Source: Apium graveolens (lineage: Eukaryota; Streptophyta; Magnoliopsida; Apiales; Apiaceae). From it: a DNA stretch of 64,000 bases. Below, one piece after another: positions 14,948 through 60,477 of the stretch. Under the pieces are notes generated by a model. The model was given only the letters and a program-made list of their open reading frames with translations. It was not told the DNA's origin and searched no databases. How positions within the stretch are numbered: position 1 is the stretch's first letter; the number at the start of each line of letters is the position of its first letter. Location: contig NC_133647.1 in the NCBI RefSeq assembly GCF_009905375.1, positions 137,325,263 through 137,389,262 of the forward strand, read 5' to 3'. A program made the position numbers and the translations under genes.

Positions 14948-14970
14948 GTGTCAAGGTATTTACCACTACT

Positions 14971-14978
14971 TTTAAATA
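14971..14978 (+). promoter_or_regulatory. TATA-like element upstream of the long accessory ORF
   Basis: TTTAAATA about 190 bases before the ATG at 15,170, followed by a CT-rich stretch (15,050-15,110) typical of plant leaders. A weak match to TATA consensus. Confidence 0.35.
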
Positions 14979-15169
14979 CATGTCTGCCATGTGTCCTCAA
15001 CGGTTACTTTTTGTGTATAAGTAAAAGAGAGCAAAGATTGTCAAATCTTTTATTTACCTTTATATTTTATCTCTCTCTTTACTTTTCAACTCTCTCATCT
15101 ACTGACGATTTTCTTTTAAGAGGCATTTTCTCAAACACATTACAGGTTACCGATTTCTTTCCAAACATA

Positions 15170-38269: not shown

Positions 38270-39208
38270 AAGATTTTAATATTTAAATAGATTGATTTTT
38301 CACATACACTGTTAATTTAAATATATTTTTGGTGATATGACAAAATTTAAAAAAAAAAGAAATTTATTTGTTTTTTATTTTGACAGTCAACCAGTAGTTT
38401 GATCGGTATTTGTTACTAGTGTCTAACCCTATCCTGATATTTTAATTTTATTAAAAAAAATTTATGAATAATCCAAACATACGGATGTCAAGATCTATAT
38501 ATTTTGGTGATATGACAAAAAATTTAGAAACAAAATAAATTGATATTATTTGTTATTTTAACAATCAACTAATAGTTTGAATATTACTTCTAACTAATAT
38601 TTAGTCCTATATTGATGTTTTTAATTTTTAAAAAAATATAGGGCTAATTCAACCGTACGAATGTTAAGATTTATATATTTAATGATACCATAAAATTTTA
38701 AGAAAAATATAAATTTATTTAGTTTTCTATTTTAACAGTTAACAAGTAGTCTTACCGATATTTCTTACCCGTGTTTAATCCTATATTGATGTTTCGAATT
38801 TTAAAAAAAATATTAATGAATGATCCAACCGTAAAAATGTCAAGATATATTTATTTTGGTGATGTGACAAAAGTTTTAGAAAAGAATAAATTGATTTTTC
38901 CTGTTATTTTAACAATCAACCAATAGTTTGAATAGTAATTCTCAATAGTGTTTAAACTCTTATTTATGTTTTTTTTTAAAATATATATGAATAGTTCAAC
39001 CGTACGGATGTTAAAATATATATTTTTGATAATATCACAAATTTTTTAGAAAAATATAAATTTATTTAGTTTGCTATTTTAACTGTTAACAAGTAGTCTC
39101 TCCTGTATTTCTTACTAGTGTTCAATTCTATATTGATATTTTCTATTTTAAAAAATATATCTAAGAATGATCCAACTGTAGGGATGTCAAGATATATATT
39201 TCTTACTA
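38270..39208. repeat. 176-bp satellite array, five units (second locus)
   Basis: Landmark copies at 38,470, 38,646, 38,822, 38,993 and 39,169 (spacing 171-176 bp) match the 3690-5189 array in order of blocks but are more diverged. The array ends in a partial unit against a SINE fragment. Confidence 0.85.
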
Positions 39209-39786: not shown

Positions 39787-41073
39787 CACTACAAGAAATT
39801 CGACCGAATTTAGTCTAAAATAGCTATTTTCGACCAACTAGTTTTTGGTCGAACAAAGGTTAGTCGAAAATAAGGGGTGCGGTCGAATTTAGCTAAATTC
39901 GACCGAATAAATTTGACCAACTAAATTCGACTAAAATTGGTTAAAAAAACTCAGCCCCAATTTTTTTGACAAAAAATTAAATTTTTCGTAAAATTCAAAA
40001 ATCCCGCGCACAAATACTAAATTCGACCAAATCTGGTCGAAATTACACGCTAAATTCGACCAAATCTGGTCGAAATAAGTATGCCAAATTCGAACAAAGT
40101 TGGTAGAATTTAATAAGCACCATATTTTTAAAAAACAGCAACAGAATGGATTTTGGAACTTTCTACTAGTTTTTCCATAATTTAATTTCATAAAACAATA
40201 ACGTACACAATAGTAGTTTTTGTTTACTGATATTAAAATTACATAAATAAATAATATAGATTTTAGAATACAACAATTTATATCCTTTAGTAACATATCG
40301 AAAATCAAATATTATAAGATTAACTCACCCAAATGATAAACAAATATGAAAAAAATAAAAAATAAATTTAAATTGGTTCATATAAATGAACTATTTGATA
40401 CAAGTCTTATTTTACTTCTAAGTTTCCGAAAATGAATTTTCCCGAGGTGATGGCATAAATTCTCGTCGGAGGTGATGGAGATGAACTCGCCATAATTGTT
40501 CTGAAATGGTGAACTTGCCGAAATTGGTGTGAATTGGATGAATTCACCTGAATTGGTTTAAATTAATTCGCCATTTGGAAAAATATAATTAGATGATATT
40601 TAGTATGAGAGATGTGTATGTGTATATTATTGGGAATATACAAAATATGTATGATTGTGTATGTAGTTAGAGAGTAAAGTTAAGTATGAGTGTAATTTTT
40701 TTATAAGAGAATTAAATTGAATGAGGAATATAATGAGAAAGAGATGAGGGTGAAAGATTCAATGGATGGGATGAAAGGATTGAAAAATAAATGAATGGTC
40801 AAGATTAATTCAAGTTGGCATTCCATGTGCTTTCTTCTCAACCAATAGAAGCGTGACAAATGGCAATTCTGAAATGTGCTAAATTCGACCAATAAGGGTT
40901 AAATTTATAATTTCAACTAGATTTAGTCAAAAATAAAACACGGGTAAATTCTACCATTTTTGGTCGAATTTAGCAGTTAAATTTGACTAATTTTGGTAGA
41001 ATTTAGCAGCGAAATATGACCACTTTTAGTAGAATTTAGTAGCTAAATTGAACAACTACGGTTTGCGGTAGTA
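39787..41073 (+). mobile_element. CACTA left end, copy 2
   Basis: CACTACAAGAAATTCGACC at 39,787, with AAATTCGACC-type subterminal motifs, homologous to 36,973-38,236. On the minus strand it contains a TATA-like CTTATAAAAAAATT (near 40,700), then a pyrimidine-rich leader, then an ATG near 40,494 that opens MASSSPSPPTRIYAITSGK and about nine more codons. This could be a captured promoter and first exon; I do not recognise the gene. In copy 1 the ATG is lost. Confidence 0.65.
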
Positions 41074-41089
41074 TTTAATGCATATGACA

Positions 41090-41703
41090 CATATATTTGT
41101 TAAAATATTTAATATATTAATATTTAAATAGATTGATTTTTCACATACACTCTGAATTTAAATATATATTTTTATGATATGATAAAATGTTAAAAAAAGA
41201 AATTTATTTGGTTTTCTATTTTAACAGACAAGCAGTAGTTTGATCAGTATTTGTTACTAGTCTTTAACCCTATATTGATATTTCAATTTTTTTAAAAAAT
41301 ATTTATGAATAATACAAATATACCGATGTCAAGATCTATATATTTATGTGATATGACAAAAATTTTAGAAATAAAATAAATTTATATTGTTTGTTATTTT
41401 AATAATCAATTAATAGTTTGAATATTACTTCTAACTAGTGTTTATTCACATATTCCTGTTTCAAGTTTTTTTAAAATATATAGGAATAATCCAACCGTAT
41501 GGATGTTAAGATCTATATATTTTAATGATATCACAAAATTTTGAGAAAATGAATTTATTTAGTTTTTTATTTTAACAGTTAACAAGTAGTCTTACCAGTA
41601 TCTTTTACTAGTGTTTAATCCTATATTGATGTTTCAATTTTTCAAAAAAATATTAATGAATGATCCAACCGTACGGATGTCAAGATATATATATTTTGGT
41701 TAT
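41090..41703. repeat. 176-bp satellite array, three units (third locus)
   Basis: Landmarks at 41,311, 41,488 and 41,662 with 174-177-bp spacing; same block order as the other two arrays. Cut on the right by Copia sequence. Confidence 0.85.
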
Positions 41704-41704
41704 G

Positions 41705-42790
41705 AGCATCAAATTTACTATAACTCATTTACTTAAGTGGGAAAACCCAACCATTCCTAATAACGCAGAAAGAATGGTCCAAACGAGCCAACAACAAAGT
41801 GAATGTCAGAGGTAGAAGTGGCTTTGGTTTTAATAACCGTGGAAGAGGAAGGACCAACTATAGAGCCAATACCAGTAGTAAAGCATGTCAAAACCAGGCA
41901 AAAGAAGGAAGCGGTAACAACACACCGAGTCGAGATCGTACCAAGGTGAAATGCTATAATTATAATGCCTATGGGCATTATGCATCAGAATGCAGGAAGC
42001 CTCGATATGAAAGGGAGTGGCACTGTGACAAAGAGCAAAAACCAGAGGCTAACTTAACTCAGATAAAGGATTATGAATCAGCCTTATTACCGACTGAGTA
42101 TGAAGAAGTAAATGGCGTTGCGTTGCTACTAAATGAGGAAGGTGTGACTCCAAGGTTGGGCACTGAGATTGAGAGTGGAAAGGTGTCAAATGTCTAGTAT
42201 CTGGACAACAGGGCCAGCAACCATATGACAGGGGTTAAGCCAAAGTTTTCGCAACTAAATGAAAGCATAACAGGGAAAGTGAAATTCGGTGATGGATTCA
42301 GTGTCAGCATCAGAGGAAGGGGAATAATTATTTTAAAATGCAAGAATGGAGAATCTCGCAAACTTAACAAGGTATATTTTATCCATAGTCTCTGCAACAA
42401 CATAATTAGTTTGGACAGTTATCCGAAGAAGGTAACAAAGTAACACTAAATGGTGAGTTTCTGTGGGTACATGATAATGTCGTAAAATTATTGATGAAAG
42501 TGAAACATACCTCGAATAGATTGTACAAAATTCTACTTAATGATGAAGCAAATAAATGTTTACTAACAAGTGCAGAGGTTAGTACGTGGTTGTGGCATAC
42601 AAGATTGGGGCATGTGAACTTTCAAGCTTTGACCCTTATATCTAAAAAGGAGATGGCAGTAGGCTTAGTGTATTTGTCACTTCCCAAGTCTGTTTGTGGT
42701 GGGTGTTTAATGTCCAAGAAGTCCCGAAGACCGGTTCCGCAGAAATCAATTTTATACCCGTTCTCAAATGCAAACATCAGTCAATCGTCC
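41705..42790 (+). pseudogene. Copia fragment: gag zinc knuckle, protease site and GAG-pre-integrase
   Basis: A frame from about 41,766 to 42,443 reads an Arg/Gly-rich Gag tail, one zinc knuckle with its second Cys replaced by Tyr (CYNYNAYGHYASEC), then, after a TAG at 42,195-42,197, YLDNRASNHMTG, a Copia protease motif with the usual DNGAS changed. Another frame (42,491-42,790) holds the pre-integrase finger (WLWHTRLGHVNFQAL, CGGCLMSKKSRR). It differs in sequence from the Copia at 5.2-19.7 kb and resembles other Copia lineages. There are no LTRs; the fragment is bounded by satellite on the left and a transposase exon on the right. Confidence 0.85.
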
Positions 42791-42863
42791 ACTCCTTTCT
42801 CAAACTCTTTTGTTCTTCTGTCAGCTTTTAACCATGATCTATCCATCTTTTGACTTGAACAAA
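42782..42863 (-). pseudogene. First coding exon of a TNP2-type CACTA transposase (truncated)
   Basis: On the minus strand a T-rich tract and TTTTTCAG (acceptor at 42,864-42,866) precede an ATG at 42,846 and the peptide MDRSWLKADRRTKEFEKGVDD. This is the start of the transposase-associated domain found at the N-terminus of plant TNP2/En-Spm transposases (usual opening MD(R/K)SWM). The frame stops at about 42,782, exactly where the Copia fragment begins, so the rest of the gene has been lost. The upstream intron and leader extend rightward to about 43,660. Confidence 0.72.
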
Positions 42864-42866
42864 CTG

Positions 42867-43723
42867 AAAAAGAGAAATGGCACAATGATATGGTCAAAAG
42901 GACACAACTATAAAATGACACAACTACAAAAATGACATGGTCAAATAAGATGAATCCTTTTATTGGAGACATGGTCAAAACGACATAACTACAAAAACTT
43001 CAGCTACACTAACATAACAGAACAATGATATGGTCAAACCTGCAACTCCAAAAACAGAGCAGAGATGTACATTGAGCAATGATAAGAAAAAACATCTAAC
43101 ACAAACATAACATTGAGCTACAAAAATATAACATAACTACAAAAACTAACAACTATATTAAACTGCAATGAGTTGAGCAGAGAACATTGAGCTACAAAAA
43201 CATAACATAACTACAAAAATTGCAACTATAAAAACACAAATTAAACTACATCTAAATGAGTTGAGCTAAAAATTAAATTAAAAATTAAACACAAACAAAA
43301 CTAAAAATTAAACAGATATTAAACTACAGATTAGTTAACCTAGATTAGTTGAGCTATAAATTAAACAGGAATTAAACTATAGATGAGTTGAGCTAGATGA
43401 GTTGAGCTATAATTTAAACACATATCCAAAGCACAAATAAATTCAAGTAAAATATAGTCCCCAAATTACTAAACGGAGGACCTCACATATAAAATCGAAG
43501 GCTTAAACACCAGAAACACTAGAAACAAAAGAGGTTGAGTAGGTGGAATTACCTATAACGGAGGTGAGTAAAAGGAGGGAGCCGCCTCCGTGATGAAGCA
43601 GAGAGTAAGAGAGTAAGAGAGTCGAAGAGATGATAAGCGAGGAACGACCTAATTTCACTATGCAGTTATTCAGACATAATTAAAGCTCAATGACTGTGAT
43701 ATTATCTTAAATTTTGAGTACCG
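42867..43723 (-). other. Intron and CT-rich leader of the truncated transposase gene
   Basis: On the minus strand, 43,560-43,660 reads as a pyrimidine-rich leader (repeated CTCTTACTCTC) ending near GTTATAGGTAATTCC, a donor-like site. The ~680 bases after it are intron-like, rich in GTAGTTATGTTATG and AGCTCAACTCAT repeats, and end at the acceptor at 42,864. No other coding sequence seen. Confidence 0.5.
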
Positions 43724-45082
43724 GCTTGTGTGATTTCTTGGTAAAAGATCGGATTAATTTATCAAGTCGATGAATCTCTAACTCGGTTTAGGATTTTCAA
43801 AATTTCGGGTTGTGTAATTTCCGGGTAAAAGATCGGATTAATTCATCAAGTCGATGAATCTCTAACTCAGTTTAGGATTTTCGAGATTTTGGATTGTGTG
43901 ATATACGGGAGCAAAACCGAATAACTGCATCATGTCGATGAATCACTAACTCGGTTTTCCATTTTACAAGATTACGGGTTATGAGATATAAGGGTAAAAA
44001 ACCGAATTACTGCATCATGTCGATCAATCACTAATTCGGTTTAGGATTTGCGAGATTTCGGGTTGTGTGATATATGGGAAAAAAACCGAAGTACTGCATC
44101 ATGTCGATGAATCACTAACTCGGTTTTCCATTTTAAAAAGATTACGGGTTGTTAGATATACGGGTAAAAAACCGAATTACTGCATCATGTCGATGAATCA
44201 CTAACTCAGTTTAGGATTTTCGAAATTTCGGGTTTTGTGATTTCCGGGTAAAAAATCAGATTAATTCATCAAGTCGATGAATCTCTAAATTGGTTTAGCA
44301 TTTTCGAAATTTCGGGCAATGTAATTTCCGGGTTAAAAATCGGATTAATTCATCAAGTCGATGAATCTCTAACTCGGTTTAGGATTTTCAAAATTTCGGG
44401 TTGTGTAATTTTCGGGTAAAAAATCGGATTAATTCATCAAGTCGATGAATCTTTTTCTCGGTTTAGGATTTGCGAGATTTCGGGTTGGGTGATATACGGG
44501 GAAAAAAACCGAAGTACTTCATCATGTCGATGAACCACTAACTCGGTTTAGGATTTGCGAGATTTCGGGTTGTGTGATATACGGGAAAAAACTGAAGTAC
44601 TGCATCATATCGATGAATTTCTAACTCAGTTTAGGATTTGCAAGATTTCGAGTTGTGTGATATACGAGAAAAAACCGAAGTACTGCATCATGTCGATGAA
44701 TCACTAACTCGGTTTAGGATTTGCGAGATTTCGGGTTTTGTGATATACGGGAAAAAACCGAAGTACTGCATCATGTCGATGAATCTCTAACCTGGTTTAG
44801 GATTTGCGAGATTTCGGGTTGTGTGATATACGGGAAAAAAACCGAAGTACTGCATCATGTCGATGAATCACTAACTCAGTTTAGGATTTGTGAGATTTCG
44901 GGTTGTGTGATATACGGGAAAAAAACCGAAGTACTGCATCATGTCGATTAATCTCTAAATCGGTTTAGGATTTGCGAGATTTCGGGTTGTGTGATATACG
45001 AGAAAAAATCGAATAACTGCATCATGTCGATGAATCACTAACTCGGTTTCGGATTTGCGAGATTTCGGTTTGTGTGATATAC
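43724..45082. repeat. ~85-bp tandem array, 16 units, two interleaved subtypes
   Basis: TCGATGAATC (or a close variant) recurs every 83-86 bases from 43,767 to 45,030. Units share TTTAGGATTT, GATTTCGGGTTGTGTGATAT and ACTAACTCGGTTT. Two versions alternate: one with GGATTAATTCATCAAGTCG, the other with CCGAAGTACTGCATCATGTCG. They occur in blocks (first two A, then B, then A again, then a long B run), a sign of unequal exchange. The 76-codon frame near 44,721 arises because this repeat length can stay open; it is not a gene. The array lies exactly between two divergent CACTA genes. Confidence 0.92.
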
Positions 45083-45522
45083 TTATCTGGGTTATTTAGG
45101 GTACATTATATTCATAATCTGATCTTATTAATATGATATACTTATTCGTATAAATTTATCAAAATTGTAGGATAAAGTTAATTAATTGAACATATATTGT
45201 ATAAGATCATATTTTTAACAATACACTCATCCGTGTAAAATTATCAAAATTATTGGATCAAAATATTATTAACAAAATATTAACATAACCGTTGTTATAG
45301 AGGCCGTTTAATTACACATATTTAGACAAAACTATTGTACCTAAATCTAACATGGTTGTTTCTTAAAAATAATTTTCACTTATTTTACTTTTAATAACAA
45401 AAACAATATTATAGAAAACTGCATTGGCCGTTAGATGAAAGCCAGCTTGCAATCTCATCCATTGGTTTAAATTTTCGTTACCCCCCAAATCATTTTTTTC
45501 TCCCCCCGTTTTTTCCCGGTGT
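45083..45522. other. Region upstream of the CACTA second gene
   Basis: AT-rich with a few AACCGTTGTTATAG-type motifs (about 45,290-45,440) like the subterminal repeats at 55.1-55.8 kb. No coding frame. Confidence 0.45.
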
Positions 45523-45528
45523 TATAAA
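45523..45528 (+). promoter_or_regulatory. TATA box of the CACTA second gene
   Basis: TATAAA in GTTATAAAGTAAC, preceded by C-rich tracts and followed by a leader with repeated CAGCTCATTTCA. A good donor-like AGTAAGGTATATG near 45,650 would start a ~1-kb first intron ending at CATATAG before the ATG at 46,691. Confidence 0.5.
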
Positions 45529-46690
45529 GTAACATTCAGCTCATTTCAGCTCATTTCATCTCCTCACAACCCATGATCACTCAACCCCAGCTTAGCGGCG
45601 ATTTCAACGATTATACCCACGATCATTCCATCTCCAGCTTAGTAAGGTATATGCTCAACCCTAGAGCAAAGATTTCATAGATTTTTGGGGATTTTTTCTT
45701 GGGTGTTTTCGATTTCATAGCTTTTTATTTTGGGGTTTTTCTTGGGGTTTTTCGATTTCATAGATTTGGGGGTTTTGTGTATATGGATTTGGGTGGTTTT
45801 TTGATTATATGTATTTGGGGTTTTCATTCGATTACAAAATTTGGGGTTTTGTGTATAAAATTTTCCATGCAACAGCTCAATCGATTAAGGTTGTGTTTAT
45901 TCCTTTTTATGCTATTTGTATTCATTTTAATATGGTTGTTGACTTGTTTGTTGAGGTGTTCACTGATGATTCTTGTTTGGGTGGTTGATGATTCCTTTTT
46001 ATGTATTTGGGGTTTTTATGCTGTTTATATTCCTTTTTATTCCCTTTTACTGATGATTTGAGGATGTTCTGGTTGGATGATTTGATGATTTGGGTGGTCG
46101 ATGATTTGATGATTGGTCGCCTTGTTTGTTGAGATGTTATATTCCTTTTTATGCTTGGTTTTGTTGTTTTTTTTTGTAATTTTGATTTTAGAAATTGAAG
46201 TTTGATAAATCGGATATGGTTAATATGCTCATATTTGCTGTAACTCGGTTTGATAAATTGAAGTTACCTGGGTTTTATATGAGTTGTAAAATTTGAGCAA
46301 ATGAGACTTTTATATGTTAGCAAATGATCTAATTCAAATGTATGTAATTCATATGTTATCTGATCTAATTCATGGATTAAAATATGTTTTTTCTGACAAA
46401 ATATCAAGCATATATGTTATCTGAATTGGAATAATTTTACGTGAATCTTGACTTATGTATGATTTACTGAAGATATATGCTAGTTTATGTTCTAAAACAA
46501 ATAATTATTAACTAAATGACAATTGGAGACGTCTATAAGTCTTACTGGTATGCTAGTTTATATGTTAGTTTATATGTTAGCATATTTGACTATATGCTAG
46601 TTTATATGTTAGCATATTTGACTATATCCTAGTTTATACGTTTTATGTTTGTTATGTTTTATATGTTTGTTTTTCTGTGGCATATAGATT

Positions 46691-47592
46691 ATGGCTACAC
46701 CTAAAAAGACAATCAATTCAAAGAAGTCAGAGTTAATGACGAGAAAGTCACCAAGGATAGAGAAGAAGAGGAAGGAGTTTAAAAGGAACAACCGATCTTC
46801 ATCCCATTAGAGTACGATGAATGTGATCAGGGGTTTAAGGAAGACAAGGTCCTGTAACAACCAGACACCCACTGAGACCCCCACCCCATCCACTTCTTCC
46901 CAGAAATCCGTAAAGAAGAATGCTATATCTGAAACCTTGCAGAAAGAAAAAGGAAGCGAGCGAAGCCTGTTACCACCACAAATGATAATCAAGGACTAAA
47001 ACTGCTTAAGCGAGGCTGTGTAACCATGCATCGAATTGTGAGATGGAAGATCATGGGAAACAAACTTACAGTAACTTTTAATGGTAAAGGAGAGTCGTTT
47101 GGTCCTGAAGTGGGAGAGATGCAATCCTATATTGGGGTTTTGGCGAGAACCAAACCACCAATATGGCATGAAAGTTGGAAATATGTACCTGATGAAGTAA
47201 AGACAAAGATTTGGGACTGTGTGCTGGTAAAACAAATTAAAAATATTATGTGATTTGCTTCTTTCATTATATATTCATTTTTGAAATTGTTTTTTTTAAC
47301 TTGCTCATTTTTTAAAACTGCTTATGTTGATTTGGTACTGATGTGTATCTGATATATTTTAAATTGCTCCAATATTTAGATGACTTTTGTGTTGCCTCCG
47401 TCCGCCAAGAAGTTGGTTTTACGTTCGGCGGGTCAAAAATGGAGGGAGTTTAAAAGTCGGCTGACGACACATTACATTCTCCCTTATCGAGATCAACCTG
47501 AAATGCTGGCATATCCTCCTGCAGATTTTTCATTTATAGAAAAAGCACATTGGGATATATTTGTTGCTGATCGCACGTCGCCTGAGTTTTTG
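46691..47592 (+). pseudogene. CACTA second gene, N-terminal exons (plant transposase Ptta/En/Spm-like)
   Basis: First coding exon from ATG 46,691 (MATPKKTINSKKSELMTRK): a Lys/Arg-rich, probably nuclear N-terminus with a stop at 46,808-46,810 and a frame change near 46,990. The frame then reads RGCVTMHRIVRWKIMGNK, MQSYIGVLARTKPPIWHESW and KTKIWDCV up to a donor near 47,226. The next exon (47,380-47,592, acceptor AATATTTAG, donor GTATGT) gives FVLPPSAKKLVLRSAGQKWR and HWDIFVADRTSPEFL. This is the conserved region of the second protein of plant CACTA elements (Transposase_24 type), thought to bind subterminal DNA. Confidence 0.78.
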
Positions 47593-47689
47593 GTATGTTT
47601 CTACATAGCATTTATGAAGCACTTGACGACTTGTTAAGCATTGGAACAATATATACTTACTAATCATCTTATAACCAAACTTGTGCTTT

Positions 47690-49388
47690 TTATGAAGAAA
47701 TGTCATGATGAAGCTGTAGGAAGAAGGATGCTAAGTGTATAATCTCATCGCATGTCTCGAAAAGGTTATGCTAACCTCGAGTATAAATGGGTAAGTAATA
47801 GTGAAACAACTTAGTTATTACTCAAGTAATGTGACTGATATTTATACTATTACTAAGGAGTTCATCTACATATGAATGCAGTATCAATCTCATCCAGATG
47901 AAGAGGAAGTTGATCGATCATCAACCTGGGTCCTCACAAGGAAGGACAAAGATGGAAAATTTTTAAGTGACGTTGTTCAGAAAAAAGTAGAGGAAATTGT
48001 AAGTAATAAATTTGTGTCTTAATTCAGTTTGTTCACTACCTCGTCATTTAATTAGAACCTTTTTCCCTAAATTGTTAGCAAACTTTGAATTCCATATTAT
48101 ACTCCATGTACAAGTTTGACAGTTACATAATTGGATTAGTCTTTTATATGGAAATAGCACATACTGATGATATGGTACTCGTAATATTGTAGGAAAAACT
48201 GAAAAAGGAGGTTAAGGAAGGGACACTAAAAGCAGAAGGTGTTGATGATGTTTTGACCCTGGCGCTTGGTAAGCCTGAGCATGGTGGGAGGGTCCGTGGC
48301 CAAGGTGTTCATTTAAAACAGAGCATTTATTTTGATCTCCCTAGGCAAAAGAAAGCCAAGACAATGGATGAAAAGATTCAGGAAAGAGTTCAGAGATTAA
48401 TGGCAGAGGAAACTCCAAAGATTATCAAGGAGAAAGATGCTTTCTGGGCTGCAGAAATGGAGAAGCTCAGGGCAGAGATTTTAAAAAAACCTGTACAACA
48501 AGATGGTAGTCCGAAACACACTTCCCAACAAGCAAGTTGTCACTCTAATGACGGGGTTGACGGGGATATAGGTGTAAAGAATCCTTATACACGTGAAGCT
48601 GCAAAGAAGAAAATTTCGGTTTAAAAAGAGGGGGGTGTTCAGAAGTTTAAGAGGATTGATACTTTGTTTATTGATTTTGCGGAGGAACATGAGGATACTC
48701 AGAAGGTGGTCGGGGAGGATGAAAATGTTAGGTTTGTTGAGGAGAAAACATGTGAGCAGGTGAAAGTGAATGCTTTAGATAATTCTTTGATGAAATTGGT
48801 TGTAGGATCGCTCAGCAACATTGTAGCTTGTGCGATGATTGATGAGGTTATCGTTCCTGAGGGTGGAGAGTAGACAATTCATGGAGTAAGACTTGGTGAA
48901 GAGAATGCAAGAGTGTCAATCACTCAAGTCATTCAAGGTGATGCCAAGATTCCCTTCCCCATCGGTGATGAAATTGTGACTGTGGAATAAGCCGTAGGAA
49001 CTTTTATCCCATGGCCGAGAAGACTGATAACCTCAGGGAACAGTAACACTTCTAATGTTTTGTCAGCTCCAAAGGTCATAATCTTTTTCTATTAGTATTT
49101 TTCCTGCATGTAGTATGCATTTTATACTATTTTAACATGGTTATTTTATTGCAGAAAGGCAAGAAAAAGAAAATGAAGAAGACGTTTAAAGTGGTTGCAA
49201 ATGTTGAACCAGAGTTTGTGCTTGAGATGGGTGAAAATTACCCATCTGCACTTAAGTGCTTGTGGACATGGGCACAGGGTGCCCTAGCTGATGGGAGGAC
49301 TGTTTCTTTTGACCTATGCAAAGAAGCCTTTGCCTCGACAAAGAAACATGTCATTTACTTATCAATATTTATGCGGTGTGCTCTGGAG
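47690..49388 (+). pseudogene. CACTA second gene, middle exons
   Basis: Exons inferred from splice sites: about 47,690-47,790 (SHRMSRKGYANLEYKW), 47,881-47,998 (TWVLTRKDKDGKF), 48,193-49,073 and 49,156-49,388. The third is long: GKPEHGGRVRGQGV, a coiled-coil stretch (MDEKIQERVQRLMAEE), then GSLSNIVACAMIDE and HGVRLGEENARVSI with AVGTFIPWPRRL. This last block is the domain usually found before the protease part of these proteins. Stops at 48,622, 48,871 and about 48,988 break it. The last exon is Lys-rich with MKKTFKVVANVEPEFVLEMG. Confidence 0.75.
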
Positions 49389-50487
49389 GTGAAATTTCAG
49401 GCTCTGTCATTTGCCTTTTTATTCAGTAAGTTTTGCCACATATTTAATTATTTTTTTGTAGATAGTCCCTTATCATACTCTACTCACTACTGCTCATTTT
49501 ATATGTATCTTGTTAAATGACCATATCAGAAAATAGAAGATGAGCAGCATGATAAGGTTTGTAGATCGAAGTACGATTGGTGCCATCGGATGTGGTAATG
49601 CAGGCCAGAGGTCACGTGCACTGGCTGCACATTTTAAGAATGCTAAGAAAGGACAGTACTTTCTATTGCCTTACAATTCCATGTAAGTTTTAATAGAATA
49701 TCCGCGTAGACATTCTAACATAATTTTGTGGTTAAACATGATTATATGTCCTGCACTATATTAGTTGATTTTTTAAGAACATCATAAGTGAAATTCAAAT
49801 TTTAAGGTTAAATCAGATAATATTCAGTGAAATTCATAAGTTTAATTACTGAGTTTATAACTAGAAATGTTTGTTTTAATTTTTGGGTTGAACTTTTACA
49901 ATAGGTTGATATTTAAAATAAGTGAGAATGTGTCACCTTGGATTAATTTTGGGTTATTAATGTTGGCAACATGGTGTGCATTAGTACAAGATTTGCTTGA
50001 GTACAATATTAATATTAACATGGTGTTCAATTGTTGCAATTTGAGTAGCAACCATTGTAATCTGACTGTTGCAAATCCTGAGGCGGAGATTGGCCACTAC
50101 ATGGACCCTCTCAAGCGTTGAATTGCTAATGGGGAATGGGTCGATGTTGTGGACAAGTAAGTTCAATTTATAATTTTTGTGCTTGTAGTCTTGAACCATC
50201 ACTACACCATAAATGGCCTACAGCAACACCAAGAAAATGTTACAACAGGCCCAAAAAAGTGTTACCACAGCCAGAAAAAGGCCTAAGTTAACATAAAAAT
50301 TAAGTTGCTTTTTTTCGAGTTACCTTTGGCCCCTAAGGTAACATTACTTTTGCCCTGATGTAACATTCACTTTTGTGTTACAATAGCCGTCAAAGGTAAC
50401 ATTAATCTATGTCTATAGTATCACAATATGTATGTTACCTTTGAACTCAGAATTTTCAAAAAAAATGGGGCCCACCAGTGGGGCCCA

Positions 50488-50541
50488 CAGTGGTGACGTG
50501 GCATGTAGGTTCCGCAGTGGTGACGTGGCATGTGGGTCCCA
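50488..50541. repeat. Two direct 27-bp repeats with ACGTGGC core
   Basis: CAGTGGTGACGTGGCATGT occurs at 50,488 and 50,515. Each contains ACGTGGC, the core of ABRE/G-box-like sites bound by plant bZIP factors. They lie in the left subterminal zone of the 50.2-54.2 kb CACTA; any regulatory role is inference. Confidence 0.55.
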
Positions 50542-51009
50542 CAGTGCTAGCATCAAATTTGTACCTGGGGTAACACTTTGAACAACCTACTCTAACACTT
50601 TATGAAGCTACTGTAATAATTTACCAGGAAGAAAAATGAAAAACAAATATTATAAAGTGTAAAATCGATTGCAAAATTTAAAAATATATTACATTAATCT
50701 AATACATTCCAAATTTCATAATCTCAACTACATTCATAACCAGTTTACCATCTACTTAAATCACAATAAATTTAACCAATACAACCAACTAATCTACATC
50801 CCAAAACTTAATCCACTTCCTGCTAGTAGCTGTCGAGAACTTGACACGTATGCATTCATCAACAAATATATAGTTGTTACGACTGAAATGAGAAAGAAAC
50901 AAAGGTTAGGTCATACAATACCCTATATATATACCCCATGCAAAAGTATTGTACTTCTATATTCTATAACAACTACTATTTTACATACCTGATGCATATA
51001 TACATACAA

Positions 51010-51395
51010 CAATACCTGCAAACTCAATGATGCCAATGTATCTCTCCATCTAGCTAGCATTTTTTGCTGCATCAACATGAACAACAGCAGTATTATCTAA
51101 AAGAATGATAAGAATCAAGTACTAAAAAATAATCAAGTATTATCATTTGTTTAGCATGGACATCCTGGTAGGCTTAGATAATCATGTAAAATTAAGCCTG
51201 GAACAAAAGTAAAACTATTTTTTCATATAGCTTGGAATTATTAATGTGTAGCAATCATATTTGCAACCAACTAATCTAAACTACACTTAGATTAGAATTA
51301 ATAAATGAAGTGATCAACATTGGCTGCAAACTCAATGATGCCAATATATCTCCCCATCTAGCTAGCACTTTTCGCTGCATCAACATGATCATGGG
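51010..51395 (-). repeat. Duplicated ~65-bp exon-like segment
   Basis: The segment beginning TGCAAACTCAATGATGCCAA and including CATCTAGCTAGCA and GCTGCATCAACATGA is present at about 51,014-51,080 and 51,327-51,393 with six or so differences. On the minus strand it could end with a donor (TTTGCAG then GTATTG) in the left copy. Possibly a further captured exon downstream of the kinase exons; the gene is not recognised. Confidence 0.45.
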
Positions 51396-51489
51396 GTATC
51401 TCTATTTGTTTTCTTTAACTTTTCTAACACTAGCAGGATAAATTTCTTATGAACACAAAGTACTAGAAAGTTGAATATGAAGTACTAAC

Positions 51490-52442
51490 AAGCTGTTTCC
51501 GGTTTGGAGAATAACCTCAGGAGCCATCCAATATGGGGTACCCTTCATTGATTTGGCACCGGTCATCGTAGCCTATGCAGAAACACAAAATGGATTTGAT
51601 ATATTTGCACTTTGATACTAAGATTTTAAATAGTAAAAACAGTATAACGTATAATATAATTATAAGTGACAAGAGCATTTTCCATACCAGTTCAACAACT
51701 TTCTTAGATGCTCCAAAATCCGCAAGTTTAATGCACCCCTTATTATCAAAAAGGATATTTGCCCCCTACATATAGCATATGACTTAAGAATAAGATAAAG
51801 GAGCAGTCAAAGAAAAGCTTCTTTGCTTCCCCAGTTACAAATTTCCGAAAAACAATAAAGTACCTTGATGTCTCTCTGCATTATACCATTTTTGTGAAGG
51901 TATTCCAGTCCCGGTAACAGCTATTTTGTATATATTCTCAGAACCTGCTCGGCACATAAGTATAATAACCCTGTATAAGCTTCTACCGCAAAGATGTAGG
52001 TGAACTAAATTAAATCACGATAAATAGGAAACATTATTGGTAGCTCTTGTTTTAAATCATTATAGTTGTTTCCAGCTTAGCAATGGCCAATATATACATC
52101 CTTATGCTCTAAAAGTTCACTTATTTTGTTCATTACCAAAATAATTAGTTTCAAAACATATGTAATAAGTTTCATTCACTTACAGACTCGGGAAAAGAAC
52201 CAAACTTCTCGAGGAGCGACGGGAATGATCCTCCTGGAACAAACTCTAACAAAATATTAAGTGAATCATCCTCTTTAGTAGTTCCAAGATATCTCTGGAA
52301 AGAAATGGAAAAACAAAAAAAAAGTTATCAGATACGTGAACATATGTCCACATAATTCCAAATTTACTGTACTCACAACAATGTTTGGATGAGAGAGATT
52401 CTTTAACAACTTCACTTCCTCCTCAAGTTCCCGAACATGAGC
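51490..52442 (-). pseudogene. Captured NPK1/ANP-type MAPKKK kinase fragment, five exons
   Basis: On the minus strand five exons with proper GT..AG borders join in frame: 52,442-52,377 ([20 protein letters not shown]), 52,294-52,194 ([20 protein letters not shown]), 51,944-51,864 (GLEYLHKNGIMQRDIK), 51,775-51,688 ([20 protein letters not shown]) and 51,572-51,490 ([18 protein letters not shown]). They cover the kinase domain from the alpha-C/E region to subdomain VIII and match plant NPK1/ANP MAPKKKs almost residue by residue. The P-loop, the lobe after APE and the regulatory tail are absent. The catalytic HRD is QRD, and one codon in exon three (YTK then stop) is TAG. Introns are kept, so capture was at the DNA level. 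Not functional as a kinase. Confidence 0.88.
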
Positions 52443-52597
52443 CTGTATATAAGCATGTTCATCGAACAGTGATTTACATTAGTATCAGGCTATTACTATT
52501 AGAATATTATTACGGTGGGAAATTGAAGAGAATCATCAGAGACATTTACCCTGCAGAATCTTAAAGCATACCTACTACTGTTTATGTTTCAGATTCA

Positions 52598-52792
52598 CTA
52601 GTCATCTGCTACAAAGATATCTATGCTTGGCTGATGAACTATACATACAACAGTTCTCCGTGATGTTGGCTCTACTGCAATGGTAAGCCTCTTTCTTTGT
52701 TCAGTTGATAGATCATTTACTCGTAGGAGTCCAACTATCGCATTTCGCAGCACATCCAACTCAGCTAACTCCATCACTTCCTCAACAAACAT
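52598..52792 (-). pseudogene. Captured PDR-type (ABCG) transporter fragment
   Basis: The minus-strand frame reads [20 protein letters not shown], then [14 protein letters not shown], then [15 protein letters not shown]. This is the first or second nucleotide-binding domain of a plant PDR/ABCG full-size transporter. The ABC signature (usually [19 protein letters not shown]) is present, but the Walker B (FMDEPTSGLDARAA) is reduced to PTS by two internal losses that keep the frame. It lies just upstream (on this strand) of the kinase exons, so a transcript could fuse the two. Confidence 0.85.
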
Positions 52793-52799
52793 CTAAAAA

Positions 52800-53570
52800 G
52801 TGAGAAAATGTTAATATATCAACCTCGTCTGATTTGGTTAGACAAATCCAAATTCTTGCTCTAGTCAAATCTACTAAATCTAACAATCAAACTAAATAAT
52901 TTTTTTGACAAAAAAAACTAATTAAATTCATATAGTATAAGAACCAAGTAACAAAATAACCATTTTATGCTTACTCTACAAAAAAAATTAACTAAATTAA
53001 ATGAATAACCTTATTGTAGAACGTACATCAGAAGCAACAAAAAAGAATCTTATTCAAGCGACAAGCATCTCAATATAATTATCTCTCTCGTCTGGATCTA
53101 CTCAAACATCACATATTCAAAGTCGTTAGTTCTTGTAATTGACATAAAAATACTACATAAAAACATATTAGAAAAGGAATCACGTCATACTTGCATCACA
53201 AATCACATACCTAAATATAAGAGAGGGATCGAGTACCTTAATGTAGAAGGGAAGCTAAGCCCAAGCTCAGAAATTCAATTAGGACCTAAAATAAACCAAA
53301 CTAAACCTGGAACAAACTGTTAAAACCAATTAATTGGAGAAAAAATCAAAAAACAAAAACCCCCAATTCAAACATGAAAAACCTAGTCTTGTTTGAAACT
53401 CGAATCGGTTCAAGAAGCCCCCATATCCATCAATCTACGAAAATCTAGCTCTTACTTGAATGAAATCGACTTTAGTATACCATTAAAGCAGAGAGAAACG
53501 CAGGGAACAGCGTAGAGAGTTGAGAGAGAACGAGCAAGAAAGGGAGATAAAGGGATAGAGGTATAAAATA
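52800..53570 (-). promoter_or_regulatory. Leader-like 5' region of the chimeric antisense gene
   Basis: On the minus strand, 53,570-53,480 is CT-rich (CTCGTTCTCTCTCAACTCTC) like a plant 5' UTR. It is followed by AT-rich, intron-like sequence down to the ABC-transporter fragment. No TATA box is certain. Possibly a captured promoter/first-exon segment. Confidence 0.4.
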
Positions 53571-54694
53571 TTTTAACTTGCCCAAATTTTAACCCGCCTG
53601 TACAATTTACCACTTCTTTTGTATTTTAATTTTCTTTTTTTCAAATAAATTATTTATTATAAATTATAATCAAATTATTTATCATTTAAAAATAATATCA
53701 CTTGCTATAATTTATAAATCCAACCAATAAAATTAATTTTATTAAATTAGTTATTTTTAAAATCAAATAATAGAATTATTTATGTTTTTTATTTCTTTAA
53801 AAGAAAAAAAATTATATATTAAAAATTATATATTATTAATTAAATATGCAAAACAAAAAAATTATTAACTTATTTGATTAAAATTATATTTTTAAATTAT
53901 TAGTTAAATATATTACAAAGTTAACTAATTAAGACACAAATTATTAAAAAAATGATAATATATTATTGGTTGATACCCTATGGTAAAATAATTTCACACA
54001 TGTTGCATGGTGTAACACTTTATGTCTATAGTAACATGTTAGAAAAGCTATGGTAACATCAAACATGTAATGTTGCAATAGACAAAGATAAGCATAGCTA
54101 ATGTAACATTAGTTTGTAACATTAATGATCAAACTATTGCGATAGGCCATCTATGGCGTAGTGCATGAAAGACCACATATTTTTCAGTGACTTGATTTTT
54201 TTGTTGGTTTTTATGTGGTTGCAATACCATTAAAATTTACAAAGAGGATCTGAACAAGGTTGCGAAGAAGAAAATATTGTGGGAGAACATGGCGGTATTA
54301 ATCTATTCTACTCATGTTTTATGTATGCCATTTAAGGACATCGTTTTACTTAGTTACTTTTTTTTAAAAAATTTCAGGGAGTTCCGGTCCAGGCAGGAAG
54401 CAAGGATTATGGCCAGTTTGTGATGCGTTACATGAAGGAGATCGTTGAGGACAAAGAACTTGAGTTTGCGGCCAAGGTGAGATTTTCACTTGTGGATTTC
54501 CGATTGACTTTATACTCTTACTCCTACAATAGTACTTGTGACTTGTCTATATTTTTTTGTCTTTTTTTCAGTGGATGCGCAGGTCAAACTTGGATTATAC
54601 GGCTGATGACATCAATGAGATCCGTATTGAGTTTGCAAAATATTTCATTAAATCCCACACAAACTGGGTGTTTACAGTCAGGATCTTTTGTTGA

Positions 54695-55783
54695 ACTAGT
54701 TACTCAGTTTCTTTTTAATTATGCAGTTGATGTTGGTTAGACTGAATTGTTCATATTTTGGTAGATTTTGTCTCAATTTATAAGTGAATTGCATGGTCTG
54801 TAGATTGGTTTTAAATCTATTTTGGGGATTTAGGTTTCCGTACATTGGTTAGCAGATTTATTTTGGTTGAGTTCAAGGATGGATACGCTATAACTTGTAT
54901 TTGGTTTGATTTGAATGGATTGGTAAATCGATCAGTTTCAAGTTATGTATGTGTTTCTTTGTGTTTCTTTTGGTTGAATGGATTGGTTTGTTTTGAATGG
55001 ATTGATGTTGATTGTGGGAATATCTTGTTTTAAGTGTTACTAGGGGTTTGTTCGAAAGGCGAATTTTATATAAAAACTTTTACACAACATCAGATAATTG
55101 TGTTTTCAAACAAAAAATACCATTGTACCAGATTAATTGGGACAACAATATAATATTTTCATAACAGTTGACTAAGATGATCAAATTTGCAAAAATAAGT
55201 TAACCGTTGTGTCAAGCACTTCATATAACGGTAAAAGGTTAAAAGTGTTGACTGCAGACTTATACAACAAGAGAGTTAAACTGAAAATATTGTCTAAAGA
55301 GCGTCAAGACAGTACTTAACTACAACATTGTTTAAAGGTAATGGTATAAGCTTTAAAAATAACATTGTTTCTATGCTTTTTTTACAACACTAAAATTTCA
55401 AACTGTTGTCTAAAACAAACTCATATAACAGTTTTTCTAGTTAAATGTTGTAATCAAGCTTTCAAACAACACAATCTCGGATTAACGGTCGTTTGAAAAA
55501 GATATACGGTTGATTTTTGTTACTCTAGATTGACTGTTTAAAACCGTTATGTATTATGGACAAACTATTGCCTGTAGCTTCTTCCAACAAAGGTTGTTCA
55601 TAACAAAAAGTTGTAAAAAATACATTTCAACAAGCAGCTAAAACGGTTGTGTTAATCCTTTCTGGTAACGGTTAATGGCACCGTTGTCTGAAATCAATCA
55701 CACGGCTCCTCGATAGTCAACAGAAATTTTATATACCATACGACCGGGAAAAACAGTTGTGGGAGCCTGAAAATCTTGTAGTG
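54695..55783 (+). mobile_element. CACTA right end with AACCGTTGTC subterminal repeats
   Basis: After the Ulp1-like exons, 54,695-55,050 is 3'-UTR-like. From 55,080 the motif AACCGTTGTC / GACAACGGTT-like words recur in both orientations about a dozen times. The sequence ends GAGCCTGAAAATCTTGTAGTG at 55,783, whose reverse complement begins CACTACAAGATTTTC. This should be the right end of the element that owns the second gene (46.7-54.7 kb). No matching left terminus was found. Confidence 0.75.
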
Positions 55784-56160: not shown

Positions 56161-56779
56161 GTAAAATGATGGGAGTATCTCAAAGAATGTTAATGGAAGA
56201 AGGCAGTCCAAATTTTCAACACCGGAGAGAAATGACAAAGCAGGTGCCTGAGCACTACTAGAAAAAATACCTCAAACATCGGTTAAAAACTGATGTCTAT
56301 GTAAAAAATGACCGATGTCTTCGCGATTTATGTTAAATGTATTTTTTCATAGACATCGGTTTTTACCCGATGTCTAAGGCAGACTTTCACAACGGTTCTG
56401 GAAAACTTCTGATGTCAAATGTCAGATTAGACATTGGTTATATATATGTAACTATTATTAAAAACCTATTTTAACATCATTTTCTTTAATATAACCAATG
56501 TTAATTTCAAAAATAGTCATCGGTTATTTATTCTAGAATTGATGTTATTACCCTTTTTACATGTGCTGATATCCCTATATTAATATCGAATATTACATAA
56601 TGCATTAACTATAATTCTGAAAAAACTTGATTATCAAAACTCAACCAGTACATATATATTATTACCCAATTGAATTCAAGATCAACAAATTCTCAATGTG
56701 TACAACTTATCTCAAATACTACTATCATTCTAAGCAAACTATTCCGGTGATAAGTACAACTATTCTGAATGTTTAAAAT

Positions 56780-56905
56780 CAACCATATTCCTAGTACTCA
56801 AGTCAACCCCTTTAATGCGGGCTAGTCTTCTTGTTATGTCAGCTCCAATCTTCTTGCAAGTCTAATCATTATCTGCCTTCTCAAGAGTACTAATCACTGC
56901 TGAAA
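56780..56905 (-). pseudogene. Unrecognised captured exon
   Basis: The minus-strand frame gives ISTLEKADND, a stop, then GADITRRLARIKGVDLSTRN. It has protein-like composition and lies in line with the other antisense exons of the 56.25-60.32 kb CACTA. I do not recognise the parent gene. Confidence 0.4.
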
Positions 56906-57327
56906 TGAATCAAACCATAACACAGGGGGTGAACAATATTATTAAATGTTTCAATAAAAAACGCTATACCGATTCACATCTTTCATAATAAATAGGAAAG
57001 ACAAGCTTAGTTAATCATGTAAAAAAAATTAACCAGCAATTACCATGCTTTTGGGCCCACACTTGGTGTTACAATGTATCAAAAAGTAACAATTTTTAAA
57101 GAGGTAAGATAGACAAAAATTACACAAACAAATGCATGCACACTGAAACTACTTGGCAACATTGACATTATCATTTGCTCTTATCCTTTCACATCATAAT
57201 TTATTGGAAGTAATTTAGAAAATATAAACAGAAATAATACTATGTTATCTTCAAAATTCAAAACATGGATACATAGATTGACTATATAGTATTCAATACT
57301 GTTTGCATAATATCTATAAAAGCTTAC

Positions 57328-57406
57328 CTTCTTTCCAGTTTCATCCTGTGTGAATCTTTCATGTGGAATGTAAACACCATTCTTTTCCCTTACCGTACTG
57401 ACATCT
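57328..57406 (-). pseudogene. Captured kinesin-5 exon
   Basis: The minus-strand frame reads VREKNGVYIPHERFTQDE up to a GTAAGC donor at 57,327. It matches the stretch just after the motor/neck of plant kinesin-5 (usual AAREKNGVYIP(R/K)ER). Only this short exon is present; not functional. Confidence 0.7.
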
Positions 57407-57588
57407 ATTTCAATTCAAATACATAGGCTATCAAGTATGAAACTTATATCATAAAACAAAAGAAAATCATTTTATAAACATATGTCATCAGTGGGCTAAA
57501 TGACTAGCATATCGTTTCAAATTATTTTAATAGTACAAAGTACACTGCAGTCATACAGAAGGGCGAATTACTTTCTTATGTAAAATAC

Positions 57589-58500
57589 CTGCATGGCCCC
57601 AGCACCAAGGACAAGCTGGCAAGTCTTTGTGTTATAGAACTTAAAGAGCTCTACAACACGCTGCACAATTTTGGTAGAAAGCACTGCCAAAGAATCATTC
57701 ATATCAATGTACTCTGACAACATCTTCAGCAAGACTAAGCCGCTGAAAAGTAAAAATTAACAATAATTTTAGCTTAAACCAGCAAACAAAGTGGTTACAT
57801 ATAAAGAAATGAAGGCTCTTCGAGATAGAACTCTAACCATAAACTATAAATATATCACATTGAATACATATCTAAACAACATACATGCCAGGAATATGAC
57901 GGAATAGATATAAATAACAATATTTCAATTTAAAGGAAAGCTGCAAAATTAACTGCTGGGACTAGAATATTCGTTGATGATAACAATTACATGTTTCAAA
58001 AGTATTTAGGTTTCTATCAAATAGGTCATTATACATTAATGATGATAATATTAATAATGAACAAACAAGGAAGATTTGAGGTAAATTCACGTGGTAGGAA
58101 AAGTAGCTGAGAGAACTTACCAGTTTACCATGTGATTTCCAACACCTCTAAAGGTAAGTGTTCAATCATTTTTACTAGCACTGTTAGTTGGAGCTGACAA
58201 AGTACTATCAACTGGCCCAGTTGAGGAGGAAGCATTTGGCCTGTGATTGCAGAGCTCCACGAATGCTATCATCAGCAACATCTACCTACGCCCATGTATC
58301 CTGGTCAAGTATTGCTCTTATGTTAGCCATCTACAGGTAACCGGGATATTGTTAGTTAACTAGCTATATGAGTTTACCTTCCTACAAGAATTAAACACCA
58401 TTAGAAAAACACTAACTCTAGATTCATGTTGGAAATCCATAAAGGCTTTGGTCTGTGATTGCAGAGCTCCACGAAAGCTATAACCCGGTCATCCAACAAT
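57589..58500 (-). pseudogene. Captured VPS54 fragments
   Basis: The clearest exon is 57,742-57,589 (acceptor TTTTCAG, donor GTATTT), uninterrupted: GLVLLKMLSEYIDMNDSLAV, then VQRVVELFKFYNTKTCQLVL and GAGAMQ, as in plant VPS54, a subunit of the GARP tethering complex. Upstream on this strand are damaged VPS54-like pieces at about 58,335-58,235 (MANIRAILDQDTWA, GALQSQAK) and 58,500-58,401 (GALQSQTKAFMDFQHESR). The GALQSQ segment is present in both, so part of the exon was duplicated. Small stops and shifts occur in the latter two. Confidence 0.75.
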
Positions 58501-59104
58501 CTGTTATGCTGAAAATCTGTTATGTTTATCCTTAAGTAGCACAACCTTGGATACTTTCTGATTTTCCTGGAAAGGTGGAATTCTTTTGGTAAGAAAGATA
58601 AAACAGAAAGAAAACTTAAAGGAAGAAAAAATAGCAATGTAGACCTCTGGCTTGTTCTTAGACGATGTACATAATCTAGTGTGCTTAATGTTTCGTCTAA
58701 GCAATGGGCAGATGGATACAAACACAAAGGAACATGGAAACAAACAAAGGATAAAAATGTTGCCATATAAAACTGGTGGAGTTGCAGAAAAATCTAAAAA
58801 CCAAGTATTCATGAAAGTCTTATTTATTTAGATATCATAGAATATACTCGATATTAATACAACAACGACAACAAGGATAAAAAATTTCCCCTACCATAAG
58901 CATAGATGTTCTACAATCCCATATCATCAATGAAAAATCTCCCCTACCATAAGCATAGATGTTGTAGCCGAAGGCGCCCTTTGTAGCAATATGGACTAGA
59001 TCGTACCTATCATACAAAGAAAATAAAAAAAATTAGTAATTGTATTACTTGTCTATCATCTTCTAAGCAAATAATTAGCTTCAGTGATAAGACAGATGTT
59101 GTAC

Positions 59105-59235
59105 CTCTTTTCTAACTTCCGTATCTCTGAAGGAAAGATCAACTATATCTGAAGTCGGAATAATTTTCCATGTTGGAATTATCCGAGTAAGCTTGCTCAG
59201 AGCAGAAATCACCAATCCGTTTGGCTTTACATCAT
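59105..59235 (-). pseudogene. Captured monoacylglycerol lipase/caffeoylshikimate-esterase-like exon
   Basis: The minus-strand exon between acceptor ATTACAG and donor GTACAA reads DVKPNGLVISALSKLTRIIP, then WKIIPTSDIVDLSFRD. It matches the lid region of plant MAGL-like alpha/beta hydrolases (usual KPHPVVxxLLT, IIPKWKIVPT). The catalytic residues are outside this exon. No stop inside. Confidence 0.7.
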
Positions 59236-59834
59236 CTGTAATTTGATTAAATAGAAGTTTCACGGCTTAAAACATGTACATAATGTTCTATATTTGAAGT
59301 AAAAATTATAAGCATCTATTTTTCTTTTTTCGAAATTCCTTATCCTACATGTTTATATACTGAGAAAGAGGGAGACAGGCCTGCACATAGAAGCAAGTAA
59401 AATAACACCATCCCAGAAAGCTGGTTTCTTTTTGTGTAAAAGGAGCACAACTACTCAACCCATTAATTCAAGACATACAATATCTAAAGTCAGCATGTTT
59501 AATCAATATAATATCTCATAATCTTTTTGATTATTTAAGCATAATTCTTCCAGTTTCTTATGATAGACATTATTTTCCGGTTACATGTGAAATAGAGGAA
59601 GCAACCACTGCTTAATATCAAACAAAATACCACTAATTTGTACACAAGAACACAAACCTAATTAAAGCTCACTGAATCTCAAGACCTGTTAAAAAAACCA
59701 AATAAAAATTATGAACAAACCTAATTGAGCAAATTAAATCTAATTAAACAAACAACCTTAATTGAACAAACAAACCTCTTTAGAACTTAGGGTTTCTCAT
59801 AGATAGAGTTTGATTAATTGAAGGTGTTCTTCAA

Positions 59835-60005
59835 TTTAGGATTTATTTGAAACATATGAACTCTTCCTGGACTGATATGGTGCGTGTGTGTGAGAGAGAG
59901 GAAGGTAGAGAGATGGAAGAGAGAGAGAACCAAAGAGATGGGAGAGAGAGAGGGGGGGAGACTGAGCTGAGAGAGAGCAGAAGTGAGAGAGACAAAAGGA
60001 ATTTT
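59835..60005 (-). promoter_or_regulatory. CT-rich leader of the second chimeric antisense gene
   Basis: On the minus strand a long TCTCTCTC-rich stretch (60,000-59,880) resembles a plant 5' UTR/core promoter region. The plus-strand frame of Arg/Glu-rich residues here is a shadow of the GA repeat. Inferred role only. Confidence 0.4.
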
Positions 60006-60477
60006 TTCCTAAAGGGGGGAAACGGGTTTGTTTTTGGGTTAAGGGGGAATAATCGGGAAATAAAAGGGGGGAAACTTTCCGCATTTTTTTTAACTTTTTT
60101 TAGTTAACCATTGATAACGGTTGTAAACTAAGACCGATGTCTAAAAAAACATTGGTTATATCAAAAACCGATGTCTAACTAACATTTCTCATTTTTGAAA
60201 AATATGTATAGACATCGATTAATTTACTAACCGATTTCTAATAAAATAATTAACATCGGTCATTTGAGCAACCGATGTCTAAGGACCGACGTCTATTGAC
60301 ATAATTCTAGTAGTGGAGGCTCAAGCACCAGCAACCAAAAAGGGAAAGAGCATCCAGAAGAAAACCAATCTGAAAGCAAAGTCAGTGTTTCAGCCTCAAA
60401 CATTGTTGTTCGAGCAAGAGGACATTATCTCGGTAGAAAGACCAACTCAGTCGGATCCTATCGATTGGAAAAAATAA

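What the first reader, a model, noticed from the sequence alone, without database searches (positions are those of the whole stretch)
50210..54163. CACTA element carrying fused antisense kinase and ABC-transporter fragments
Perfect 3-bp target duplication, matching terminal repeats and no transposase, but five intron-bounded exons of an NPK1/ANP-type MAPKKK lie next to a PDR ABC-transporter fragment from a different gene, both on the same strand. This is transduplication of at least two unlinked host genes by one CACTA. The exons keep splice sites, so an antisense chimeric RNA against two host gene families is possible.
Basis: partly seen in the sequence, partly recalled or inferred. Interest (0 to 1): 0.86.

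Follow-up and report, generated by a model that had tools for sequence, protein, structure and literature searches.

The report
Plant jumping gene carrying gene fragments
A non-autonomous CACTA transposon in a celery-like plant genome carries pieces of a kinase gene and of a transporter gene that line up as one spliceable chimera, and a celery protein filed as a kinase is the same chimera; gene capture of this sort is already known.

Summary
On its minus strand lie one PDR-type ABC-transporter exon and five NPK1/ANP-type MAPKKK exons, all in phase 0, with introns. It is a multi-gene Pack-CACTA, a known kind.

New here: a 204-aa celery (Apium graveolens) protein named NPK1-like is the same chimera. 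Its PDR-kinase junction fits a cryptic donor inside the PDR exon, and its tail has a counterpart inside the element. Both copies share five kinase residues absent from the 11 longer NPK1-type proteins compared, so they probably descend from one captured ancestor. The window copy is decayed: a stop codon, and QRD in place of HRD.

'Antisense' is not supported: the exons are collinear behind a promoter-like pyrimidine-rich leader on their own strand, so the unit reads as a sense chimeric gene. Celery DNA, parent loci and RNA were not examined; the genome search did not complete (10 tries).

The parts
50197..50199 (.). target site duplication CAT (left)
50200..50218 (+). left terminal inverted repeat CACTACACCATAAATGGCC
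   Evidence: 17/19 with right end
50239..50574 (.). left subterminal region with 9 GTAAC/GTTAC motifs and a 27-bp tandem repeat (50484-50546)
50789..50882 (-). tail exon up to its stop codon; encodes NYIFVDECIRVKFSTATSRKWIKFWDVD, counterpart of the end of the celery protein. The acceptor TTTCAG| at 50882 is inferred; joined there in phase 0 this copy would meet a stop at once
51007..51083 (.). 77-bp direct repeat, copy 1 (90% identical to 51315-51391), between kinase exon 5 and the tail
51315..51391 (.). 77-bp direct repeat, copy 2
51516..51572 (-). kinase exon 5 as far as the celery protein uses it (ends APE|, followed by GTTATT); homology to MAPKKK runs on to about 51490
51688..51765 (-). 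kinase exon 4 ([26 protein letters not shown], includes DFG)
51864..51944 (-). kinase exon 3; in-frame stop codon, and HRD motif reads QRD
52184..52294 (-). kinase exon 2
52377..52442 (-). kinase exon 1 ([22 protein letters not shown]); begins downstream of the GAFG loop and the N-lobe lysine seen in the longer relatives
52649..52792 (-). PDR-type ABC transporter exon up to the cryptic donor GTT|GTATGT that fits the junction in the celery protein; the open frame and PDR homology go on towards a stop at 52598
53456..53561 (-). putative pyrimidine-rich 5' leader (60-nt window starting at 53561 is 85% C+T; highest of 200 controls 80%), ending at a donor-like GTAAGA; TATA-like stretch just upstream (about 53571-53563)
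   Evidence: role inferred
54012..54120 (.). right subterminal region with 5 GTAAC motifs
54145..54163 (-). right terminal inverted repeat CACTACGCCATAGATGGCC
54164..54166 (.). target site duplication CAT (right)

Best explanation
It is a non-autonomous, multi-gene Pack-CACTA. A transposase encoded elsewhere acts on the CACTA ends and subterminal repeats (inferred). At some time an ancestor of this element took up genomic DNA of an NPK1/ANP-type MAPKKK gene (five exons with introns) and of a PDR ABC-transporter gene (one exon, since shortened inside), and then spread as a unit. On the minus strand a promoter-like leader could drive a sense transcript that splices PDR and kinase pieces in frame through a cryptic donor in the PDR exon (inferred from the celery protein, not from RNA). 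The peptide lacks the N-lobe ATP-binding part of the kinase and most of the transporter, so it is most likely without kinase or transport activity (inferred from anatomy). The window copy is a further decayed relic, apparently in an intron of a broken Ulp1-like transposon gene.
For: TIRs, TSD, subterminal motifs, no transposase found. Kinase and PDR identity. Introns retained, so DNA-level capture and not retroposition. Celery protein P0001 is the same chimera: 163 of 173 residues identical to the window exons joined the same way, and a tail that matches the window's (29-column alignment, 90% identical). Of the 320 proteins held from the three listings (120 shown of 457, of 1099 and of 5220 hits), only P0001 holds the PDR piece or the tail. 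The 11 longer NPK1-type proteins compared (508-701 aa) have the kinase N-lobe in front and no PDR piece. 5 of 131 kinase positions are shared by both copies and absent from those 11 (4 of the 5 sites are uniform in them); 5 further changes, the stop among them, are private to the window copy and 3 to the celery copy, all 8 at sites uniform in the 11, which argues against constraint as a kinase. Literature: Pack-CACTA with several captured loci (PMC8903248, sections 8 and 10 read); soybean Tgm-Express1 (PMC1947982, abstract and passages).
Against: Parent genes and other DNA copies in the same genome could not be searched (genome search did not complete). The celery copy's DNA, and so its ends and splice sites, was not seen. 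No RNA evidence. The promoter reading is by composition only. Only 8 of 27 frames were scanned for transposase remnants apart from the kinase and PDR pieces. No plant PDR protein was compared.
Confidence: 0.87

Rival explanations
1. The PDR-kinase chimera arose first as a cellular gene (by ordinary duplication or another transposon), and a CACTA later picked up that single chimeric gene.
For: Celery has the chimera as a named protein, P0001. All 204 residues of P0001 but the first two of its tail have a counterpart inside the element, as whole-gene pick-up would also give.
Against: The peptide lacks functional parts of both domains; both copies change at sites uniform in 11 longer relatives; only P0001 carries the chimera among 320 proteins held, which are capped listings.
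Confidence: 0.1
2. The element is a source of antisense RNA or small RNA against MAPKKK and PDR genes.
For: The enclosing Ulp1-like gene runs on the + strand, so read-through pre-mRNA would be antisense to the exons (read by eye).
Against: The host gene is itself broken (stop read by eye) and weakly recognised (Pfam C48 E=0.06, below cut-off); the element would be intronic; no long ungapped internal inverted repeat (longest listed 36 nt at 78%); no Rfam match at gathering score; the celery protein is sense.
Confidence: 0.06
3. The unit is a young gene: some copies, such as celery P0001, make a functional fusion peptide under selection, for example a decoy that binds NPK1 partners.
For: The celery protein has no interruption and keeps HRD and DFG.
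Against: Substitutions at sites uniform in 11 longer relatives in both copies; no ATP-binding N-lobe; the window copy has a stop and QRD.
Confidence: 0.06

Closest known systems
Tgm-Express1 (soybean CACTA in the wp allele; PMC1947982, abstract and passages seen)
   Same: CACTA with fragments of several unrelated host genes (CDC2 and FPK exons among them) that keep splice sites and are joined into chimeric ORFs.
   Different: Tgm-Express1 carries five fragments, sits in intron 2 of the F3H pigment gene and has cDNA evidence; here two identified genes, apparently an intron of a broken transposon gene, and no RNA evidence.
Pack-CACTA elements of Arabidopsis, rice and maize (PMC8903248, sections 8 and 10 read)
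   Same: CACTA ends, no transposase, host coding DNA inside, in maize often from more than one locus.
   Different: Own TIR sequence; 3-bp duplication (that paper reports 5-nt TSDs for its CACTA set); one copy is known as a named celery protein.
Pack-MULEs and Helitrons with captured genes (PMC13317346, section 7 read)
   Same: Transduplication giving chimeric transcripts.
   Different: Other transposon superfamilies; ends here are CACTA.

Membership tests
CACTA (En/Spm) superfamily | TIRs beginning CACTA | tested here: met
   CACTAC at both ends, 17/19 matching
CACTA (En/Spm) superfamily | 3-bp target site duplication (length recalled; PMC8903248 writes 5 nt for its set) | tested here: met
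   CAT/CAT
CACTA (En/Spm) superfamily | subterminal direct and inverted short repeats (described in PMC8978399, passage) | tested here: met
   GTAAC/GTTAC 9 in the first 400 bp (max of 1000 controls 7) and 5 in the last 200 bp (max 5)
CACTA (En/Spm) superfamily | mobilised by a CACTA transposase | not testable with these tools
Pack-CACTA (gene-capturing, non-autonomous) | no transposase gene inside | tested here: met
   largest frame 109 codons; no transposase profile in 8 frames scanned of 27 listed; short remnants not excluded
Pack-CACTA (gene-capturing, non-autonomous) | contains host gene sequence, with exons and introns | tested here: met
   PDR exon and five MAPKKK exons
Pack-CACTA (gene-capturing, non-autonomous) | intact parent genes elsewhere in the same genome | tested here: inconclusive
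Pack-CACTA (gene-capturing, non-autonomous) | more than one copy at different sites | tested here: inconclusive
   second copy known only as celery protein P0001; its DNA and site not seen
NPK1/ANP-type MAPKKK | complete kinase domain with glycine loop, ATP-binding lysine, HRD, DFG (motif names recalled) | tested here: not met
   fragment begins downstream of the GAFG loop of all 11 relatives, HRD reads QRD, stop in exon 3; a fragment of such a gene, not a member
PDR (ABCG) ABC transporter | full nucleotide-binding domains plus membrane domains (recalled) | tested here: not met
   64 codons only; its two halves match separate stretches of PDR-type sequences (TIGR00956/TIGR00955; a weak second alignment about 33 residues further on); a fragment only

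The most novel reading that the evidence does not exclude
A Pack-CACTA has built and spread a new exon-shuffled gene in celery and its kin: PDR and MAPKKK exons are joined in frame by a splice donor made out of PDR coding sequence, with a further tail of unknown origin, and some copies are transcribed and translated into a fusion peptide.
Probability: 0.15. Interest if true: 0.6.

Novelty: new member of a known kind. Interest (0 to 1): 0.36.

Why it matters
It gives a concrete, checkable case in which a public protein name (celery 'NPK1-like') most likely labels transposon-borne, recombined gene fragments and not a MAPKKK. A pair of copies, one open and one decayed, allows tests of whether such chimeras are expressed or selected. 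Interest is moderate, since multi-gene capture by CACTA elements is well described.

Tried and rejected
Own-genome search for parents and copies: same request sent 10 times, never answered. Scan of viral contigs for the terminal sequence: 0 matches (the tool says records near the window's genome may be left out). Pfam on the PDR piece: nothing at E 0.01. RNA families at gathering score and tRNAs in the window: none. Hairpin source of small RNA: no long ungapped inverted repeat inside. A larger CACTA at 39787-55783 enclosing this one: ends share only the 10-bp TIR, and the looser criterion gives 8 chance pairs in 20 controls, so left open. Papers: I saw no report of this element in the listings of 7 searches of an open-licence library; most listed papers were not opened. 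The Catoni 2019 paper was not held.

Corrections to my own steps: my first PDR exon end (52652) was 3 nt short; the same call gives 52649, used here.
Full report
What is there. The stretch 50200-54163 has the anatomy of a CACTA transposon: inverted ends CACTACACCATAAATGGCC / CACTACGCCATAGATGGCC, CAT on both sides, and GTAAC/GTTAC words crowded near both ends. A search of 2,668 CACT[AG]/[CT]AGTG pairs in the window put this pair first of 3 that passed; ends this similar with a target duplication came up in 0 of 20 control sequences, whereas the looser criterion gave 8 pairs in those 20. The finding's start is 10 bp inside the element. No frame exceeds 109 codons. Of 8 frames scanned of the 27 listed, none matches a transposase; one gave an irrelevant E=0.14 match to a bacterial glucosidase model, and the tail peptide sent in the same call matched nothing.

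The cargo. On the minus strand, in order, come a pyrimidine-rich leader-like stretch (53561-53456), a PDR ABC-transporter exon (52792-52649, its frame going on to a stop at 52598), five MAPKKK exons (52442-52377, 52294-52184, 51944-51864, 51765-51688, 51572 to 51516 or about 51490) and a tail (from about 50882 to a stop at 50789). Kinase identity is strong (Pkinase E=2.3e-38; [quoted passage not shown] PDR identity is weaker but consistent: residues 2-42 match TIGR00956 at 1e-10 and 43-61 match TIGR00955 at 5e-5, both below the full-length cut-offs; three PDR-type chains match at 8e-6 to 8e-4; Pfam gave nothing. The two halves of the piece match separate stretches, and a weak second alignment (0.3 bits) sets the second half about 33 residues further on than the first, so an inner stretch seems to be missing. 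The exact ends of that loss were not determined, because no plant PDR was aligned.

A sister copy. The joined kinase exons returned as best of 457 hits (120 shown) a 204-aa protein, 'NPK1-like' of Apium graveolens (P0001). It begins with the PDR piece and goes on into the kinase piece. Joined in the same way, the window gives 163 of 173 identical residues. The junction fits a GT donor inside PDR coding sequence (GTT|GTATGT). After the kinase part P0001 has 31 residues; 29 of them align with 28 residues that the window encodes inside the element at 90% identity. Among the 320 proteins held from the three searches, whose listings were capped at 120 each, only P0001 holds the PDR piece or the tail. 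The window's genome is therefore probably celery or a near relative; this protein is the main evidence. The gene model behind P0001 was not seen, nor whether it rests on RNA.

One capture. I compared 11 longer NPK1-type proteins picked from the 120 shown (of 5220 hits); 12 proteins were fetched, and P0126, a partial one, was left out. One of the 11 (P0202) is also labelled partial and has a repeated segment. 5 of 131 kinase positions are shared by both copies and absent from the 11; at one of the 5 the relatives themselves vary. Private changes: 5 in the window copy (one the stop) and 3 in P0001, all at sites uniform in the 11. Two further differences between the copies, in the PDR part, were not polarised. 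The shared changes suggest one ancestor after capture; the changes at uniform sites say that kinase function is not kept. Carrot P0252 differs from window/P0001 at 13/11 sites, the unnamed P0205 at 11/9, P0204 (Actinidia) at 13/11, the others at 14-16/12-14, so an Apiaceae source is suggested but not proved. Without celery DNA no dN/dS was possible.

How it works. Movement by a transposase from elsewhere is inferred from the ends. Retained introns show capture as DNA. The way of capture (for example hybrid elements from neighbouring insertions, as told for Arabidopsis in PMC13317346, section 7) is not shown here. Sense transcription is inferred from the order of parts, the leader (60-nt window 85% C+T against at most 80% in 200 control copies) and the celery protein. 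Antisense action is possible only through transcription from outside: by eye, the element lies between exons of a + strand Ulp1-like gene with a stop of its own; Pfam C48 reaches only E=0.06, below cut-off and no better than an unrelated family at 0.06, so that naming is tentative.

What is known. [quoted passage not shown] Captured gene fragments in Chenopodium CACTAs are another case (PMC8978399, passages). I saw no report of this element in the listings of 7 searches. It is a new member of a known kind.

Noticed in passing
56253-60315: A second CACTA-like pair, TIR CACTACTAGAA on both ends, TSD GAG, with shared 13-15-bp subterminal words; looks like another non-autonomous element.
   Followed up: partly
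39787-55783: Pair CACTACAAGA with TSD ATA that would enclose the whole finding; ends share only 10 bp, so unresolved.
   Followed up: partly
48193-54660: Possible broken Ulp1/C48-like, probably transposon-borne gene on the + strand, read by eye; the Pack-CACTA seems to sit in one of its introns; Pfam support only E=0.06.
   Followed up: partly
14945-18838: 1297-codon open frame without a Pfam match at E 0.01.
   Followed up: no
3725-5184, 38321-39199, 41163-41697: Three arrays of ~176-178-bp (one as 347-bp) repeats whose consensus starts look alike by eye.
   Followed up: no
43722-45082: 84-bp tandem repeat, 16 copies.
   Followed up: no
51007-51083 and 51315-51391: 77-bp direct duplication inside the element, 90% identical, between kinase exon 5 and the tail exon; origin unknown.
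   Followed up: no
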